Part shown: piece after piece, positions 19,840 through 49,602 of the stretch
How the letters are laid out: every line of letters begins with the position of its first letter
Numbering within the stretch: the stretch's first letter is position 1
From: Candidatus Poribacteria bacterium
Lineage (GTDB): Bacteria; Poribacteria; WGA-4E; WGA-3G
Direction: 5' to 3'
Assembly (NCBI GenBank): GCA_022821725.1
Contig: JAJEDB010000047.1
Span: 1 to 51,963, forward strand
DNA length: 51,963 nt
Program-made: the position numbers and the translations under genes
Notes under the pieces: generated by a model
Seen by the model: the letters and a program-made list of their open reading frames with translations, nothing else
The model's database searches: none
What the model was told of the DNA's origin: nothing

Positions 19840-19927
19840 GGTGGGATGGCTGAGTGGACGAAGGCGGCGGTCTTGAAAACCGTTGTGGCGTAAGCCACCG
19901 TGGGTTCGAATCCTACTCCCACCGCCA
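19840..19927 (+). tRNA. tRNA-Ser (UGA)
   Basis: Acceptor GGTGGGA/TCCCACC with encoded CCA, anticodon stem GCGGT/ACCGT around the loop CTTGAAA (anticodon TGA), long variable arm GTGGCGTAAGCCAC, T-loop TTCGAAT. Canonical class II tRNA. Confidence 0.95.
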
Positions 19928-19951
19928 TTATGGATAAAGATAAAAGGGTTG

Positions 19952-20037
19952 GAGTGGACGAAGGCGGCGGTCTTGTCTTTTGATAAAGGGCGTTGTGGCG
20001 TAAGCCACCGTGGGTTCGAATCCTACTCCCACCGCCA
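19952..20037 (+). pseudogene. Broken tRNA-Ser copy
   Basis: From GAGTGGACGAAGGCGGCGGT onward it is identical to the preceding tRNA-Ser(UGA) up to CTTG. The anticodon region is replaced by a longer segment containing TCTTTTGATAAAGGG, and identity then resumes through the variable arm, T arm and CCA. The 5' acceptor strand and half of the D arm are missing, so it cannot form an acceptor stem. Confidence 0.8.
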
Positions 20038-20040
20038 GAG

Positions 20041-20125
20041 GGAGAGGTGCAGGAGTGGTTGAACTGGACTGCCTGCTAAGCAGTTATGGCGTAAGCCATC
20101 GTGGGTTCGAATCCCACCCTCTCCG
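20041..20125 (+). tRNA. tRNA-Ser (GCU)
   Basis: Acceptor GGAGAGG/CCTCTCC, anticodon arm ACTGC-CTGCTAA-GCAGT (anticodon GCT), long variable arm, T-loop TTCGAAT. CCA not encoded. Confidence 0.93.
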
Positions 20126-20133
20126 TTCACTAC

Positions 20134-20207
20134 GCGCCTGTAGCTCAGTGGATTAGAGCATCTGACTACGGATCAGAAGGCCGGGGGTTCGAATCCTCTC
20201 AGGCGCT
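20134..20207 (+). tRNA. tRNA-Arg (ACG)
   Basis: Acceptor GCGCCTG/CAGGCGC, anticodon arm TCTGA-CTACGGA-TCAGA (anticodon ACG). A34 here is the usual substrate of TadA, whose gene starts about 10 nt downstream. Confidence 0.93.
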
Positions 20208-20217
20208 TCAAAGGTAT

Positions 20218-20691
20218 TTGCTGACAAATTTGGATAACGATTCCTACTGGATGGGACACGCTCTCAAATTAGCCCAACAGGCAGGCGAAAAAGGAGAAGT
20301 ACCCGTTGGGGCACTCCTTGTAAGCGGCGATCGCCTCATCGCTGAGGCATTTAACTTACGCGAAACACGCGGCAGCCCGATCGCACACGCCGAAATGCTG
20401 GTCCTACAAGCCGCATCCGAAAAAATTGGCAACTGGCGATTTGTGGATACGACGCTCTATGTGACGTTGGAACCCTGTCCAATGTGTGCCGGCGCAATTG
20501 TGTTGGCGCGTATCCCAAGAGTTGTTTACGCAGCAACAGACCCGAAATCAGGGGCAGCCGGAACGCTCTATAATATCCTTCAAGATGAACGACTGAACCA
20601 TCGGGTTGAATTGGTCAGTGGAGTATGCGCAGAAGAAAGCAGTGCCCTTCTGAAGTCCTTTTTTCAGAAACGCCGCCAGAAATCCGAATAA
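20218..20691 (+). CDS. tadA: tRNA-specific adenosine deaminase TadA
   Basis: About 157 residues. It deaminates A34 of tRNA-Arg(ACG) to inosine. The zinc/catalytic core is complete: AH57AE59 (zinc ligand and proton shuttle) and EPC87PMC90. The N-terminus YWMGHALKLAQQAGEKGEVP aligns with known TadA starts, which need a few residues before YWM. No ATG fits, so I choose TTG 20218 (AAAGG just upstream) or TTG 20230. An in-frame reading back to 20101 would run through tRNA-Arg and is rejected. The gene lies directly behind its own substrate tRNA gene and is probably co-transcribed with it from the promoter at 19787. Confidence 0.9.
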   Translation: MLTNLDNDSYWMGHALKLAQQAGEKGEVPVGALLVSGDRLIAEAFNLRETRGSPIAHAEMLVLQAASEKIGNWRFVDTTLYVTLEPCPMCAGAIVLARIPRVVYAATDPKSGAAGTLYNILQDERLNHRVELVSGVCAEESSALLKSFFQKRRQKSE

Positions 20692-20737
20692 ATAGCAGGC
20701 GGTGCTTCAGTGTATCGTGAAGACTGATAACCAATAA

Positions 20738-20822
20738 GGAGAGATGCAGGAGTGGTTGAACTGGACAGTCTCGAAAACTGTTGTGGCGCAAGTCACCGTG
20801 GGTTCGAATCCCACTCTCTCCG
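20738..20822 (+). tRNA. tRNA-Ser (CGA)
   Basis: Acceptor GGAGAGA/TCTCTCC, anticodon arm ACAGT-CTCGAAA-ACTGT (anticodon CGA), long variable arm, T-loop TTCGAAT. CCA not encoded. Confidence 0.93.
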
Positions 20823-20912
20823 TTTTTCATCTTTTTTGGAGTCGAGTTGTAAAGCGTAAGCGGTTCAAGCATCGTAACAGTTGCGTGAATGCCGCAAGTC
20901 GCTCTTTACTTT

Positions 20913-20944
20913 AACTGACAACCGATGACTGATAACCGATAACC
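20913..20944. repeat. AACTGACAACCGAT-type heptamer run before tRNA-Ala
   Basis: Imperfect 7-bp units (ACTGACA, ACCGATG, ACTGATA, ACCGATA), the family seen again at 25903-26066, 27973-28105, 33297-33434 and 34146-34236. Confidence 0.7.
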
Positions 20945-20949
20945 ATTAC

Positions 20950-21022
20950 GGGGCAGTAGCTCAGTTGGGAGAGTGCATCCCTCGCACGGATGAGGTCACG
21001 GGCTCAAATCCCGTCTGCTCCA
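20950..21022 (+). tRNA. tRNA-Ala (CGC)
   Basis: Acceptor GGGGCAG/CTGCTCC (one G-U), anticodon arm CATCC-CTCGCAC-GGATG (anticodon CGC), discriminator A. CCA not encoded. Confidence 0.93.
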
Positions 21023-21082
21023 TTTTTACTGTTACCTTGCGGTTAAACTTCGGGCGTTGGCACTATCGAATGCGTTGCTCAA

Positions 21083-21295
21083 ATCCGCCTGTGTGTTTTT
21101 GCTTGGGTATTTCTGCGTGTTGTTGCAGGCTGCTGTCTTAAGCTAATTTTACAAAACGCATAGTCCGTAATGAAATGGAGGGGTGTTTTTGCTTGGGTAT
21201 TTTTGCGTATTGCTTGGGTGTTTCCCATGGGTATACGCAAAGGCGCGTCAAACATGAAGCCCACCTGACCGAACCGCAAGGTAAAATTAAAATAT
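21083..21295. repeat. TTTTTGCTTGGGTATTTCTGCG repeat family, copy 1
   Basis: Composite repeat: TTTTTGCTTGGGTATT (twice), GTTGCAGGCTGCTGTC, a CCGTAATGAAAT core, and at the 3' end CCGCAAGGTAAAATTAAAA (21274-21292) running into the tRNA-Ser 5' end. Related copies lie at 24795-24940, 29425-29545 and 34665-34909. Confidence 0.75.
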
Positions 21296-21387
21296 GGAGA
21301 GATGCAGGAGCTGGCTGAACTGGCATGACTGGAAATCATGTGTGCTGTTTTGCAGTACCGTGGGTTCGAATCCCACTCTCTCCGCCA
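21296..21387 (+). tRNA. tRNA-Ser (GGA)
   Basis: Acceptor GGAGAGA/TCTCTCC with encoded CCA, anticodon arm CATGA-CTGGAAA-TCATG (anticodon GGA), long variable arm, T-loop TTCGAAT. Its first two bases are the last two of a repeat motif also found at protein gene starts. Confidence 0.93.
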
Positions 21388-44384: not shown

Positions 44385-45713
44385 TTACAGCGCAGCGTCT
44401 ATAGAGATTGTTGCAAGAAAAGAATTGACTTTCCCTTCCCCACTGAACGAATTCCCGGTAGCTCCCAACTTAAAGCGTGTGCCTTCGTCAAAACGGTGCG
44501 TGATTCTCCCACCCTTACCCGGTATAATCCCTGATGCTGCGGTAAGAACGATTTTAGGCATACCGTCTGTTGAGAGTTCATTATCGTTCGTGAACAGAAT
44601 GAAAGCACCTGCCCCCTCGGCACCCCCAATCCAGAGATCGATCGTGAGCGTCCCACCCTCTTTAAAGGCTGTCGTATCAATTTCAACAACGCTGTAGTCT
44701 TGATAACCGGCTGTCGGTGTTCGGAAAATACCCAAAACCTGTTGTGAAGGTTCTGTCTCGCTGAGGACAACTTTCTTTGCTTGTGTGGGAAGAAACCTGG
44801 GTGTGTATTCCGATGGATCCGCATTCGGCGCAAATCCATCACCTGTACTCGGTGTCGCAGATTTACCAACCTGTGTCCGCACATCCGGTTTTGATGCAAA
44901 ATCCAGAGCAATAGGTGTGTCGATGAGTTCCACCGTCATCTCCGACGGGGCATCGAAATTGTAAGGTTGTTGGAAACGTGTTAAGTACTGACTGCTTGCG
45001 CCAAACGCCATTAAAACAAGGACAAGGGTTGAGGCAGCAATTGCCCACGGCACGAACGGTTTACCACTGGACGGTGGCGTAGGTTGGATACGGGAAATCT
45101 CTTGCATGATTTTCTCGGTGAGATTTGCCCTAATTTGGAAACCTTCCAGTGCCTCTCGGATCATGGGTTCCGCCTTCTTCAAGCGGTTCCGCGCACGACG
45201 GAGCCGACTCTTTACCGTACTCGCTGACACCCCTAAAAATCGGCTAATCTCTTCGCATGTCATCTCTCCAAAGTAATGGAGTGTGACGACAGTGCGTTCG
45301 CTCTCCTGGAGTCGGGCAAGCAATCTTTGGACGATACCGCGCTGTGCCTCAGTCGCGGCTTTCGCCTGCTCTTCGGCAACATATTGAGAATACGTCACAC
45401 CTTCTATGAGTTCGAGGTCTGTATCTTCTAACGATTGCGTCTGCATCCGTTTTTTTCTAAGCCACGCGTGGCATTGACGTGCTGCGATTCTATAAAGCCA
45501 TCCCGTAAAACGATTCGGATCCTTGAGCGTCGATAGGTTTTTATAGACCCTCAGAAAGGTATCCTGCGTAATCTCTTCAGCAGTGTGAAAGTCGCCTACC
45601 TTCCGCCACGCGAGTGCATGAACCTGCTTCTGATATTTTTTTACCAATTGCGCAAAGGCGTTTTCATCGCCTGTGAGACTGCGTTGAATGAGTTGGACAT
45701 CGTCGTTCTTCAT
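44385..45713 (-). CDS. Membrane-anchored ECF sigma factor with extracytoplasmic domain
   Basis: 442 residues, GGAGG 7 nt before the start. Sigma region 2 is at about 15-90 (FAQLVKKYQKQVHALAWRKV, EEITQDTFLRVYKNL, RFTGWLYRIAARQCHAWL) and region 4 at about 125-182 (SERTVVTLHYFGEMTCEEIS, STVKSRLRRARNRL). A linker, one membrane helix at 220-240 (PFVPWAIAASTLVLVLMAFG) and about 200 extracytoplasmic residues follow. Residues about 325-442 are a domain that is also the C-terminal domain of both selenoproteins upstream (QQVLGIFRTPTAGYQDYSVV, EIDTTAFKEGGTLTIDLWIG). A membrane-tethered sigma factor needs no separate anti-sigma factor. It is the last gene of the minus-strand unit. Confidence 0.9.
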   Translation of the reverse strand: MKNDDVQLIQRSLTGDENAFAQLVKKYQKQVHALAWRKVGDFHTAEEITQDTFLRVYKNLSTLKDPNRFTGWLYRIAARQCHAWLRKKRMQTQSLEDTDLELIEGVTYSQYVAEEQAKAATEAQRGIVQRLLARLQESERTVVTLHYFGEMTCEEISRFLGVSASTVKSRLRRARNRLKKAEPMIREALEGFQIRANLTEKIMQEISRIQPTPPSSGKPFVPWAIAASTLVLVLMAFGASSQYLTRFQQPYNFDAPSEMTVELIDTPIALDFASKPDVRTQVGKSATPSTGDGFAPNADPSEYTPRFLPTQAKKVVLSETEPSQQVLGIFRTPTAGYQDYSVVEIDTTAFKEGGTLTIDLWIGGAEGAGAFILFTNDNELSTDGMPKIVLTAASGIIPGKGGRITHRFDEGTRFKLGATGNSFSGEGKVNSFLATISIDAAL

Positions 45714-45821: not shown

Positions 45822-47819
45822 TCACTCGACTTCATAAATGAGCCAGCTACCTTCCACTTTTCGCATCTTAGCAGATACCTCTGGTGGATTCGCCATCGGT
45901 ATTCTCAATCGGAAGTGGAATTCATCACCCACATACTCGCTGCTCAAAATCTGTATCTGGCTCAACACTTGACTGATCTGAGTCCGTACATCCTCCGGCA
46001 TGCCCTCAAAATCGCTTTCAAATGCCCCTTTGGCACTCTCTGTAACCATCGAGAGCACTCCTTCTGAGTCAAGATTCTTAAACGCCTCTACGAAAGCGTT
46101 CATTACATCTTCCGCAGATTGTTCTGAACGCGTTGGTGACACTTTTCTGGATTCTACTGCCTGATTCGGTTCGACAGAGATTTTTGCCCAAAAAGCGTTG
46201 GTACTCCCTTTTTGGCTGAACCAACTGCCAGTAGCTCCCAACTTAAAAACTTTGCCCTCGTCGAAACGGTATTTGATTGTTCCTCTTTTACCGGGCGGAA
46301 CATCCCACGCAGAAGTCAGTGCTTCGTGGGGCATACCGTGTGTTGGGAGTTCGGTGTCGCCATCGTAAAGATCGAACGATCCCTTGGGTTCAGCATTCCC
46401 TACCAGAATATCAATAGTAAGCAGACCACCGCTTTTAAACGCTGTCGTATCAATTTCAATGACAGTATAGTCTTGAGAACCTTGTCCTGGTGCTCGAAAA
46501 ATGTTGAGAACCTCCCGTTTCGGTCTTTCGCTGTTCAGTTTAACTTTCAGATCCTTTGACACAGCATCTAATTCAGGAGAAGACCCTGAATCCGATTCTA
46601 ATGAAGGGGTCGAGGTCTCTTCCCGAAATCCAGGAAGTTTTCCATCTAAGGCTTCTGTGAGAAATAAAAGGTACCCGTTAGCCCCGTTGTAAGGTGATAT
46701 ACGTTCATTAACGGGGAGTCTACCCATGAGTTCAAATTCTGTTGATAGCACCAAAGAATCTGCGGGTGAGCGTTTCTTCCAGCCTTTCATGATTGCCTGT
46801 GCCAAGGCGTGGGTTGTATCAAAGGTCTTGGATTCACGTTCGCGTCTTGTCGCAATAGGTTCCTGCAAACTGCGGACACGCCCTAATTCGGAATTGGGGA
46901 CCCATGTATTGATGAAATTTTCATTCAAGAACGCAATAATTTGATCGTCGGAGAGGACACCTGCCCTCAAGGATTTACCGCTCCCTCAGCACGCCTCATC
47001 AGCAAGCGGTCCATCTATTGAGATGACGTGAATCGGTTTTTGCTGCGCAGGTCCCATTTCCAAGGCGTCCTCCAATGAAACCCATTTGATTTGCTGCGAT
47101 TTGTAGAAACGCAATATCAGCTGACGTTCAGCCGCTGCTTGTGTCATTGATTCCACAAACTTGATGTCCGAAGCAATCTCTCCGATCTCAGCACGGAGTT
47201 CTATTTGCGGACAGAAACCGACATCTATAGTTCTGGTACTGTTTCGCCCAACATCAAAATTCAGTACACCTTCAGGGACGGCCATCTTGAAAGAGGCGAC
47301 CTTTTCCTTAATTCGATCAATGACAAGATGTCCTGCGAATTGAGACGGCGTAAATCGACCATCTTCTAAGATGAATTCTGCATGGATACGAAACACGATT
47401 TCAGCATATTTATCATTATAGGCGCGCAGGCATGCCCACAAGCCGTAGGAATCCCCTGCATTCATAATAATATCCAGATTCGGATTAGGGTGGAGTTGAC
47501 GTAATAATTCCAGCACACCCTCTTCTTTGATCTTCCAGAGATCGCCAACAGAAACCGCTGTAGGCGGGAGGAACGCATGGAAAACCGAGGTCGGATACCG
47601 CTTCTCTGGCTCAGCGACTTGCAGATTTGCCAGTTCATCCCACGCTACATGAAAGCCATATTGCGTATACTCAATCGGTGCGATGAAACCTTTTACTAAC
47701 ACTTCCGATGTGTCATTAAGATTAAGTGTAATTTTGCTGTCAGTTGATGCGTGATTATCCGCATTCAGGTGTCCGCTCATCGCAATCAGAATAAGAAGTC
47801 CAATCGTTAGGGTTTTCAT
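45822..47819 (-). CDS. Putative exported thioredoxin-like selenoprotein 1 (in-frame UGA read as Sec278)
   Basis: 665 residues if the single UGA (46986-46988) is decoded. ATG 47819 has AAGGAG upstream and a signal peptide (MKTLTIGLLILIAMSGHLNA). Residues 22-230 are an unknown domain; about 247-400 is thioredoxin-like: IKWVSLEDALEMGPAQQKPI, HVISIDGPLADEAC277, Sec278, GSGKSLRAGVLSDDQIIAFL, NENFINTWV. The C-Sec pair replaces the CxxC of the Trx_7-like fold. Residues about 435-552 are the domain shared with the sigma factor and selenoprotein 2. A SnoaL/DUF4878-like tail (VMNAFVEAFKNLDSEGVLSM) ends the protein. With UGA as a stop it would be two genes: 46986-47819 and an upstream-less fragment to 45822. 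The fragment has neither a ribosome site nor a plausible start. Confidence 0.8.
46953..46985 (-). promoter_or_regulatory. Candidate bacterial SECIS element of selenoprotein 1
   Basis: Starts right after the UGA. After 17 nt comes GAGGGC-AGGU-GUCCUC (6 bp, one G-U). The loop holds GGU, as in the Escherichia coli fdhF SECIS loop bound by SelB. Confidence 0.7.
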
Positions 47820-47887
47820 TTTTAATCTCCTTGTCATAAGTAACAATAACATTCTACACCAACAACGCTTACACAACAAGTTGTTCG

Positions 47888-47949
47888 CGTAGATTCTCCT
47901 TTTGATATATAGTGACGCGAGGAACCGACAAAACGGTTGCCTAATTCTG
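47888..47949 (-). promoter_or_regulatory. Promoter-like 62-bp repeat, copy upstream of selenoprotein 1
   Basis: Differs at about five positions from 50812-50873. On the minus strand it contains TTGTCG (47931-47926), 16 nt, TATATC (47909-47904). It overlaps the last codons of selenoprotein 2 and lies about 85 nt before the start of selenoprotein 1. Confidence 0.6.
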
Positions 47950-49602
47950 TTCCGACGCAGGTTCCACAGAAATTATAGCGAAAAAAGCATTGGTGCTTCC
48001 TTTTTTGCTAAACCAATCGCCAGTGGCTCCGAACCGAAAAAATTGCCCCCTATCAAAGGAATATGTGATTCTCTCTGTTCCACTGGGTGGAATACCCCAC
48101 GCTGAAGCAAGGGCATTCTCAGGTACCCCTTCTGTTGGCAATTTACTATCGCCAGCAAATAGATCAAACGAACCGGCAGCTTCAGCATGCCCAACAGAAA
48201 TATCAATCGTGAGCGTTCCACCGTTTTCAAACACCGTAGCGTCAATTTCAACGACAGTATAGTCTTGAAATCCGTGTCCGGGTGCCCGAAAAATATTCAG
48301 TATCTCCTGTGAAGTCCGAACATCGTTGAGTACAACTTTCAAGTTACTCAAGACAGTATCCGAATTGAACGGTTCCGGTTCTGAAGTATCTTCACCGAAT
48401 CCGGGGAGTTTTCCGTCTAAAGCTTCCTTGAGGAACGTTAGGTAACGTTGCCCCATATTTGTTCCGAGAAGGTCATTGACAGGTTGTCTGCCCATCAATT
48501 CACGGTCCGGCGAGAGAATCAAAGAATCTGACGGTGAGTGTTTCTTCCATCCTTCCATGATTGCCTCTGCTAAAGGGTGCGTTTTGTCGAACGGTTTGTA
48601 TCCTCGCTCGCGGCGCACTGCCATGTATGTTTTCTTATTGGGAGTGCGTTCCAATTCAAAATTCGACACCCAAGTGTTGATGAAATTTTCGTTCAAGAAC
48701 GCAATGACTCGGTTGTTAGAGAGGGCAACTGCCCTCAGGGTTTTGCCACTCGCTCAGCACGATTCATCCATCAACGGTCCGTCTATAGAGATAGCGTGGA
48801 TAGGCTTCTGCTGTGTCTCTACCATTTCCAATACCTGCTCTGGTGGCACCCAATTAATCTGTTGTGATTTGTAGAAACGCTGTATCAGGGCATGTTCCGC
48901 AGTTTCTTGGAGAATAGATGCTGTGAATTCAACGTTTTCCAGAAGATCTTGTGTCCCGGCACGAAGCTCCATTTGGCAAAAACCGCCTGCGACAATACTA
49001 TGGTTTGCGTATTTGTTCCGTTTCCAGTTAACATCAAAATTAATTGGACCATCAGGGACGGACATCTCAAAGAAAGCAACCTTCTCCTCGATCCGATCAA
49101 TCACAAGATGTCCAGCAAACTGGGATGGAGTAAACCAACCGTCTTCTAACTTGAATTCTGCATGAATCCGAAACACGATGTCGGCGAATGTATCGTTGTA
49201 AGCGCGTAAGCATGCCCACAACCCGCGGGAATCCCCTACATTTATATGCATATCCAGGCTTGGATTGGGGTGTAATTGCCGAAGCAAGGTCAGTGCCCCT
49301 TCCCCCTCAACCTTCCAAGATTCACCAATTGAAACCGGTGTGTCTGGAAGAAAAGCGTGGAAAACCGAGGCAGGATACCGTTTCTCAGGTTCAGCAACGC
49401 GCAAATTCATTAAGGTGTCCCACTCCTTAAAAGAGGATTCGGACAAATTCTCCTCAATAGGCGCGATGAAGCCTGTCACTAATATTTCTGCTGTCTCATC
49501 AAGGTTAAGCGTGATTTTGGTATGAGTTGCCAATTGATCATCGGCATGCAGTTGTCCGCTCATTATTACCAGTATCAGGAAACCAAGGGTTAGAATTTTC
49601 AT
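47941..49602 (-). CDS. Putative exported thioredoxin-like selenoprotein 2 (in-frame UGA read as Sec283)
   Basis: 553 residues if the UGA at 48754-48756 is decoded. Paralogue of the 45822 gene over its full length: signal peptide MKILTLGFLILVIMSGQLHA, the same unknown N-terminal domain (VAEPEKRYPASVFHAFLPDT, FTPSQFAGHLVIDRIEEKVA), thioredoxin-like INWVPPEQVLEMVETQQKPI, HAISIDGPLMDESC282, Sec283, ASGKTLRAVALSNNRVIAFL, NENFINTWV, and the shared C-terminal domain (EILNIFRAPGHGFQDYTVVE). It lacks the SnoaL-like tail. It starts 20 bp after the TolB-like stop, so the two are one transcript. AAGGAG precedes ATG 49602. Confidence 0.8.
48721..48753 (-). promoter_or_regulatory. Candidate bacterial SECIS element of selenoprotein 2
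   Basis: After the UGA and the same 17-nt spacing comes GAGGGC-AGUU-GCCCUC, a perfect 6-bp stem. Compared with copy 1 one pair changes from G-U to G-C, so pairing is kept. Confidence 0.7.

What the first reader, a model, noticed from the sequence alone, without database searches (positions are those of the whole stretch)
45822..49602. Two paralogous genes each split by one UGA at the same codon: probable thioredoxin-like selenoproteins
In both genes the frame runs ...GPL(A/M)DE(A/S)C, UGA, (G/A)SGK(S/T)LRA...LS...IAFLNENFINTWV. The sequence after the UGA is conserved between the copies, including the 17 or so codons before any later start codon, and this only makes sense if it is translated from the upstream frame. 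The downstream parts have no ribosome site and are still intact. UGA is a normal stop elsewhere in the window and Trp is coded by UGG, so general code reassignment is unlikely. The Cys-Sec pair falls where CxxC sits in the Trx_7-like fold (W...A...KPI...C). A gene finder would split each gene into two wrong ORFs.
Basis: partly seen in the sequence, partly recalled or inferred. Interest (0 to 1): 0.95.

Follow-up and report, generated by a model that had tools for sequence, protein, structure and literature searches.

The report
New Poribacterial selenium protein family
Two neighbouring bacterial genes that software cuts in half at a UGA "stop" are likely whole genes in which that UGA is read as selenocysteine; some two hundred relatives carry the same UGA, nearly all with a matching RNA hairpin behind it, which points to a large, apparently undescribed family of proteins predicted to be exported redox enzymes, often beside a sigma-factor gene that is likely a partner.

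Summary
Both genes (minus strand, 49602-47941 and 47819-45822) carry one in-frame UGA straight after a Cys. The genome has tRNA-Sec(UCA), selA, selB and selD, and its SelD itself carries an in-frame UGA. Of 227 distinct family sites read, 222 have UGA at this codon, none UAA or UAG. Seven full-length homologues have Cys there, DESC-C-G(S/T)GK; the nearest full-length ones have Gly, Thr or Trp. All six pairs of a hairpin form after the UGA in 181 of 188 distinct copies, against 3.0% of synonymous recodings; it fits the published bacterial SECIS model. The downstream half is under purifying selection, and UGA is the true stop of gene B. AlphaFold gives a DsbH/thioredoxin-like fold with the Cys-Sec pair at the head of the active-site helix. 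The family was found in 64 of 84 genomes of the phylum, with up to 15 UGA copies in 11 genomes counted, and in some Planctomycetota. It often sits beside an ECF sigma factor that shares its C-terminal domain. No Pfam or NCBIfam model matched, and a 2026 catalogue of 119 families does not name it. Redox function and sigma link are inferred.

The parts
47941..49602 (-). Gene A: predicted 553-aa selenoprotein, likely exported (N-terminal domain, thioredoxin-like domain with Cys282-Sec283, C-terminal beta domain)
   Evidence: AlphaFold2 model mean pLDDT 89.3; signal peptide read by eye
48754..48756 (-). In-frame UGA of gene A, predicted Sec codon (after TGC Cys)
   Evidence: UGA in 222 of 227 distinct family sites
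48721..48736 (-). SECIS-like hairpin of gene A: GAGGGC-AGTT-GCCCTC, 6 bp, loop starts 23 nt after the UGA
   Evidence: family statistics
48403..48930 (-). Thioredoxin-like (DsbH/Thioredoxin_7-like fold) domain of gene A, aa 225-400
47956..48339 (-). C-terminal beta domain of gene A (aa 422-549), shared with the ECF sigma protein
   Evidence: BLASTP 52% identity to ECF aa 314-441, E 3e-40
45822..47819 (-). Gene B: predicted 665-aa paralogous selenoprotein with an extra C-terminal tail
46986..46988 (-). In-frame UGA of gene B, predicted Sec codon (after TGC Cys)
46953..46968 (-). SECIS-like hairpin of gene B: GAGGGC-AGGT-GTCCTC, 6 bp
   Evidence: family statistics
45822..45824 (-). UGA used as the real stop codon of gene B
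   Evidence: 22 of 87 complete family genes, as called by a script, end in TGA
46170..46547 (-). C-terminal beta domain of gene B (aa 425-550)
   Evidence: BLASTP 56% identity to ECF aa 314-439, E 1e-40
44385..45713 (-). ECF-type sigma factor with a likely transmembrane stretch and a C-terminal domain homologous to that of the selenoproteins (aa 314-441 = 44391-44774)
   Evidence: Pfam Sigma70_r2 and r4_2 over cut-off; neighbour conservation; shared domain; transmembrane stretch read by eye

Best explanation
Genes A and B are likely intact selenoprotein genes: the UGA after the Cys in each is predicted to be read as selenocysteine by SelB and tRNA-Sec, guided by the hairpin that starts 17 nt after the UGA. 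The products are predicted to be exported, with a DsbH/thioredoxin-like domain whose adjacent Cys-Sec pair sits at the start of the active-site helix, where it would cycle between a selenol/thiol and a selenenylsulfide (inferred). A C-terminal beta domain is shared with the neighbouring ECF sigma protein, which has a likely membrane span, so the selenoprotein and the sigma factor likely work in one extracytoplasmic redox or envelope-stress circuit (inferred from neighbourhood, the shared domain and one fusion protein; untested). Shown here: UGA and hairpin conservation, the machinery genes, the Cys homologues, selection on the downstream half, the sigma neighbour and shared domain. Predicted: the fold. 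Inferred: Sec insertion itself, export, redox chemistry, signalling. The confidence given is for Sec insertion; I would put a thiol/selenol redox role at about 0.75 and the sigma circuit at about 0.45.
For: Machinery in the same genome: tRNA-Sec with UCA anticodon, selB beside it, selA, selD, itself with an in-frame UGA in CAGUASK. Cys in the column in 7 proteins. Hairpin: all 6 pairs in 181 of 188 distinct copies versus 3.0% of synonymous recodings; on 40 chosen copies the covariation score was 0.256 versus 0.173 in shuffles, 0 of 500 as high; Arg AGR 161/161 and Leu CTC 155/161 against about 24% and 16% usage. Downstream dN/dS 0.16-0.32 in 11 comparisons, with dS lower in the 17 codons after the UGA than in the whole downstream part in 10 of 11. 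UGA is still a stop. Fold. Sigma neighbour and shared domain; fusion P0142.
Against: No Sec peptide or selenium measurement. The closest full-length homologues have Gly at the site (13 of 16 spanning proteins), Trp (2) or Thr (1), none Cys. The Cys is also lost in two of these (P0011, P0015). Five copies with Gly or Ser codons keep the hairpin, so the hairpin does not strictly follow Sec. The 7 Cys homologues may be one clade of unnamed metagenome origin. 3 of 64 genomes with the family show neither tRNA-Sec nor SelB (G060, G029, G032; completeness 83, 81, 73%). In the minimum-energy fold of the longer stretch the SECIS model is met in 121 of 154 copies, against 59 of 154 recoded controls. In one search, two pairs with changes on both sides is also reached by 50 of 500 shuffles and by three slid versions. 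dN/dS in the 17 codons alone runs from 0 to 1.2, as dS is small there. Redox activity and the sigma link have no direct test.
Confidence: 0.93

Rival explanations
1. The UGA is suppressed as an ordinary amino acid (Trp by near-cognate reading, or Gly), giving a read-through protein without selenium.
For: Nearest full-length homologues have Gly (13 of 16) or Trp (2 of 16) at the site; GGA and UGG are one change from UGA.
Against: Complete Sec machinery and a UGA-containing SelD in the genome. A SECIS-like hairpin under synonymous constraint. Cys in 7 homologues. UGA remains a stop.
Confidence: 0.03
2. Pseudogenes or real stops: translation ends at the Cys and the downstream frame is a relic or a separate gene.
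For: Gene finders model it so: 42 of 164 listed database proteins end at the Cys and 99 others start after the UGA or lack the motif; gene B has a TTG start six codons after the UGA.
Against: UGA at 222 of 227 sites and never UAA/UAG; purifying selection downstream; 23 database proteins run through with a sense codon there.
Confidence: 0.01
3. Programmed leaky stop: both the truncated protein (N-terminal domain plus the start of the Trx domain) and the full Sec form are made, and their ratio reports selenium or redox state to the ECF sigma system.
For: Sec insertion generally competes with termination (established knowledge); the family often lies beside ECF sigma genes.
Against: The UGA falls inside the Trx fold, so the short form would hold a half domain; nothing here measures the ratio.
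Confidence: 0.03

Closest known systems
DsbH / Thioredoxin_7-type disulfide oxidoreductases (DsbH 2ju5, ER protein O95881 1sen, AGR2/3, DsbD-gamma)
   Different: C-U-x-S-G instead of CxxC; about 14% identity to DsbH; no Pfam hit over cut-off; extra N-terminal and C-terminal domains.
Known bacterial selenoproteins with adjacent Cys-Sec (SaoL, SaoC, SaoB, HgcA, MbdU, KCU-star, CopZ-type; Table 1 of PMC13188914, table read in full)
   Same: Vicinal C-U motif, UGA-SECIS-SelB route.
   Different: Different families by their listed domains; the selenoproteins gave no NCBIfam match at E <= 1.
Mammalian thioredoxin reductase C-terminal Gly-Cys-Sec-Gly (recalled, no call)
   Same: Vicinal Cys-Sec dyad that forms a selenenylsulfide.
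   Different: There the dyad is on a flexible C-terminal tail; here it heads the active-site helix of a Trx-like domain.
ECF sigma factors with membrane-anchored C-terminal extensions (as in Planctomycetes; recalled)
   Same: The window's sigma protein has sigma regions 2 and 4, a hydrophobic stretch and a C-terminal extension.
   Different: The extension is homologous to the C-terminal domain of adjacent selenoproteins; no paper in the library holds both 'ECF sigma' and 'Poribacteria'.

Membership tests
Bacterial selenoprotein (UGA = Sec) | Sec machinery in the genome: tRNA-Sec, SelA, SelB, SelD | tested here: met
   each best match over its family's cut-off
Bacterial selenoprotein (UGA = Sec) | In-frame UGA conserved at one codon and aligned with Cys in some homologues | tested here: met
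   222 of 227 sites UGA; Cys in 7 of 23 spanning database proteins
Bacterial selenoprotein (UGA = Sec) | bSECIS: upper stem 4-16 bp, apical loop 3-9 nt with G in its first two positions, 16-37 nt after the UGA, MFE <= -7.5 | tested here: met
   Six-pair stem in 181 of 188; all 140 first-register loops are AGGU or AGUU, and 39 of 41 second-register loops have G in the first two places; loop 23 nt after the UGA; MFE <= -7.5 in 154 of 154. In the full minimum-energy fold only 121 of 154 show it. Model from PMC13188914 section 5
Bacterial selenoprotein (UGA = Sec) | Selenium or Sec residue detected in the protein | not testable with these tools
   Needs mass spectrometry or 75Se
Thioredoxin-fold oxidoreductase (DsbH / Thioredoxin_7 type) | Thioredoxin fold | tested here: met
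Thioredoxin-fold oxidoreductase (DsbH / Thioredoxin_7 type) | CxxC active site | tested here: not met
   C-U-G/A-S-G-K; the second Cys position of CxxC is Gly
Thioredoxin-fold oxidoreductase (DsbH / Thioredoxin_7 type) | Pfam Thioredoxin_7 / Thioredox_DsbH profile over cut-off | tested here: not met
   0 families for the full proteins; of 15 domain sequences one matched Thioredox_DsbH (E 0.0087) and one Thioredoxin_7 (E 0.046)
One of the 119 catalogued prokaryotic selenoprotein families (PMC13188914 Table 1) | Match to a catalogued family's Pfam or NCBIfam model | tested here: not met
   Genes A and B: no Pfam or NCBIfam match at E <= 1; four further family members: no NCBIfam match. Families listed under other databases' models were not tested, nor was it checked that every listed model is in the libraries

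The most novel reading that the evidence does not exclude
Poribacteria run an array of exported Cys-Sec receptor proteins, up to 15 per genome, that report redox or metal signals outside the membrane to membrane-anchored ECF sigma factors through a shared C-terminal domain: a selenium-based signalling system rather than a set of housekeeping reductases.
Probability: 0.25. Interest if true: 0.87.

Novelty: new variant of a known kind. Interest (0 to 1): 0.74.

Why it matters
If right, this is a large selenoprotein family that public gene calls mostly split at the UGA (42 of 164 listed database homologues end exactly at the Cys), in a phylum for which my searches found no paper that also names selenoproteins (two name selenocysteine). 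It puts a Cys-Sec dyad on a DsbH-like fold, in up to 15 copies per genome among the 11 counted. It also gives a natural series to study Sec gain and loss (Sec, Cys, Gly, Ser, Thr, Trp at one site) and shows a SECIS-like hairpin whose pairing register shifts by two nucleotides between subfamilies. The linked ECF sigma genes make a selenium-to-transcription hypothesis testable.

Tried and rejected
Rejected: general UGA reassignment (22 of 87 complete family genes end in UGA; gene B stops at UGA); assembly error (222 of 227 sites); pseudogene (dN/dS).

Led little: Pfam and NCBIfam on the selenoproteins; PDB by sequence with the domain profile (5 matches, best E 0.64); Foldseek on the whole model gave mainly beta-sandwich domains (collagen-binding domain, GOLD) and, of the Trx type, 7tkv. 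Paper searches on selenoproteins with Planctomycetes, metagenomes, ECF sigma factors or sponge symbionts were seen as listings; from them I opened PMC13188914 and PMC4807772. PMC13188914: outline, term passages, section 5 whole, and parts 1-2 of 3 of section 7. PMC12013277 (deep-Sep): term search and passages; no Poribacteria or Planctomycetes. PMC5029168: term search only; neither word. PMC4807772: passages; its candidate selenoprotein table S9 is in a supplement that I could not read, so a planctomycete relative could be listed there. PMC5649159: passages; SelA and SelB are reported in the majority of its sponge symbiont bins. PMC9999580: listing only.

Printing slips: one search printed 3 and 4 pairs for the two window genes because of a 3-base offset; the folds printed there and one search show the full stem. 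One search printed one site as 'GTGA' because the locus end shifted the index; its context shows Cys.

Selection and dropped rows: searches count identical 90-105-base contexts once; one search also left out hits with a gap at the Sec column, without counting them. The 5 non-UGA sites are outside the hairpin statistics. Incomplete genes (23 of 110) are outside. Loci were chosen by me from high-scoring hits; one search lists only its top matches, another the best 120 of 318, another the best 80 of 141 relatives. The 40 rows were picked by me from the 90 diverse ones, nearly all of the first pairing register, which favours that structure. One search was a first regex count (134 of 145 hits TGA, some of the rest chance matches on other frames) and is replaced.
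Full report
Observation. On the minus strand, gene A (49602-47941) and gene B (47819-45822) each start at an ATG with a good ribosome site and hold one in-frame UGA (48756-48754; 46988-46986), preceded by TGC and followed by a (G/A)SGK(S/T)LRA block. The read-through products align end to end at 61% identity over 558 columns. A third copy with one TGA lies elsewhere in the genome, C68:21079-22599.

The genome has what it takes to make selenoproteins. It holds a tRNA-Sec with UCA anticodon, 78 bits; SelB next to it, 349 bits; SelA, 597 bits; and SelD, 360 bits, which itself carries an in-frame UGA in CAG-U-ASK. In the 84 genomes of the phylum held, tRNA-Sec was found in 71 and SelB in 75. The family was found in 64 of 84; of these, 57 show tRNA-Sec, 59 SelB, 61 at least one, and 3 (completeness 73-83%) neither. 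Some genomes have the machinery but no family member, such as G023. Named hits and an equal contig length (G082's contig, OX639992.1) place the phylum as Poribacteria.

The UGA is conserved as UGA. None is TAA or TAG. Among 164 listed database homologues, 42 end at the Cys, 99 start after the UGA or lack the motif, and 23 span the site: 13 with Gly, 7 with Cys, 2 with Trp, 1 with Thr. The Gly copies for which I have DNA next to a mapped sigma gene (L022, L025, L026, L029) lie beside an ECF gene, as do UGA copies of the same kind (for example L023, L024, L027); I made no tree. The Cys proteins (P0133, P0135, P0138, P0142, P0143, P0144, P0147) came from a Pirellulaceae query and bear no organism names.

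A SECIS-like hairpin follows. Counting the U of UGA as 0, bases 20-25 pair with 30-35 (loop AGGU or AGUU, 140 copies) or, in 41 copies, with 32-37 (31 of them with loop GGGUCC). So 181 of 188 distinct copies have all six pairs in one register, against 3.0% of synonymous recodings with the genes' own codon usage; at least five pairs 188 of 188 against 21.9%. On 40 copies that I picked, nearly all of the first register, 98.8% of cells pair, and the covariation score was reached in 0 of 500 shuffles and by none of six slid versions; the weaker measure, two pairs changed on both sides, was reached by 50 of 500 shuffles and by three slid versions. Arg after the UGA is AGR in 161 of 161 and Leu CTC in 155 of 161, against about 24% and 16% in the same genes. 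Related sequences are not independent, so these are not probabilities. The geometry fits the bacterial SECIS model quoted in PMC13188914, though in the minimum-energy fold of a longer stretch the model is met in 121 of 154 copies against 59 of 154 controls. The 5 Gly/Ser copies keep the hairpin: recent loss of Sec is the simplest reading, but it shows that the hairpin can outlast Sec.

The part after the UGA is coding. dN/dS is 0.08-0.25 upstream (10 comparisons; an eleventh had saturated dS) and 0.16-0.32 downstream (11 comparisons). In 10 of 11, dS in the 17 codons after the UGA is lower than in the whole downstream part, as expected if an RNA element lies on top; dN/dS within those 17 codons is therefore noisy, 0 to 1.2. 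UGA is also the true stop of gene B and of 22 of 87 complete family genes, so recoding depends on context.

Neighbourhood. The next gene, 45713-44385, is an ECF sigma factor (Pfam Sigma70_r2 and r4_2) with a hydrophobic stretch near aa 221-238 and a C-terminal domain 52-56% identical to those of genes A and B. The sigma domain was found in 50 of 204 loci scanned (L018-L221; many overlap, have short flanks, or are not of the family), always on the strand of the mapped Sec site where there is one; a weak hit (E 6e-6) lies beside the Planctomycetota copy L186. One of 44 database proteins, P0142, is a sigma factor fused to the Cys form. This makes a shared circuit likely, not shown.

Copy number. 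In the 11 genomes searched with the Trx profile, UGA copies number 3 (own), 6 (G079), 15 (G080, one of them split between frames), 12 (G081), 8 (G082), 9 (G083), 15 (G070), 3 (G061, besides a Gly copy), 3 (G046), 1 (G028) and 0 (G023).

Prior work and novelty. No paper in the library holds Poribacteria with selenoprotein or with 'in-frame UGA'; two hold it with selenocysteine, of which I read passages of one. The 119-family table of PMC13188914 was read in full and lists no such family by name; its Cys-Sec entries are other proteins. Subscription papers and supplements were not searched, so 'apparently undescribed' is the limit of the claim. I rate it a new variant of a known kind: Sec insertion and Trx-fold selenoproteins are known, while this family, its Cys-Sec dyad on a DsbH-like fold, its expansion and its sigma partner look new.

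Noticed in passing
G000:C59:72492-73415 (L139): The genome's SelD itself carries an in-frame UGA (CAGUASK), so it is likely a selenoprotein too.
   Followed up: partly
P0014, P0020 (database proteins): Proteins that start after one family UGA and run into the N-terminal part of a second family copy; P0014 ends at that copy's Cys. This suggests head-to-tail fusions with two Sec sites.
   Followed up: no
L066:2188-2229, L183:2729-2770: Here the hairpin uses a second pairing register, its 3' arm two bases further on, with loop GGGUCC, where the protein reads (L/F)RAGPLS.
   Followed up: yes
window 19840-21387: Cluster of tRNA genes with four tRNA-Ser isoacceptors (TGA, GCT, CGA, GGA); the ARAGORN tRNA-Ile at 19947-20037 is not among the Rfam matches.
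   Followed up: no
window 45825-46169: Gene B has a tail of about 115 aa after the shared C-terminal domain; similar ends occur in several database paralogues; no Pfam hit.
   Followed up: no
L095 around 7167 (+): One copy has Ser (TCA) in place of Sec but keeps the Cys and the hairpin: likely a recent loss.
   Followed up: partly
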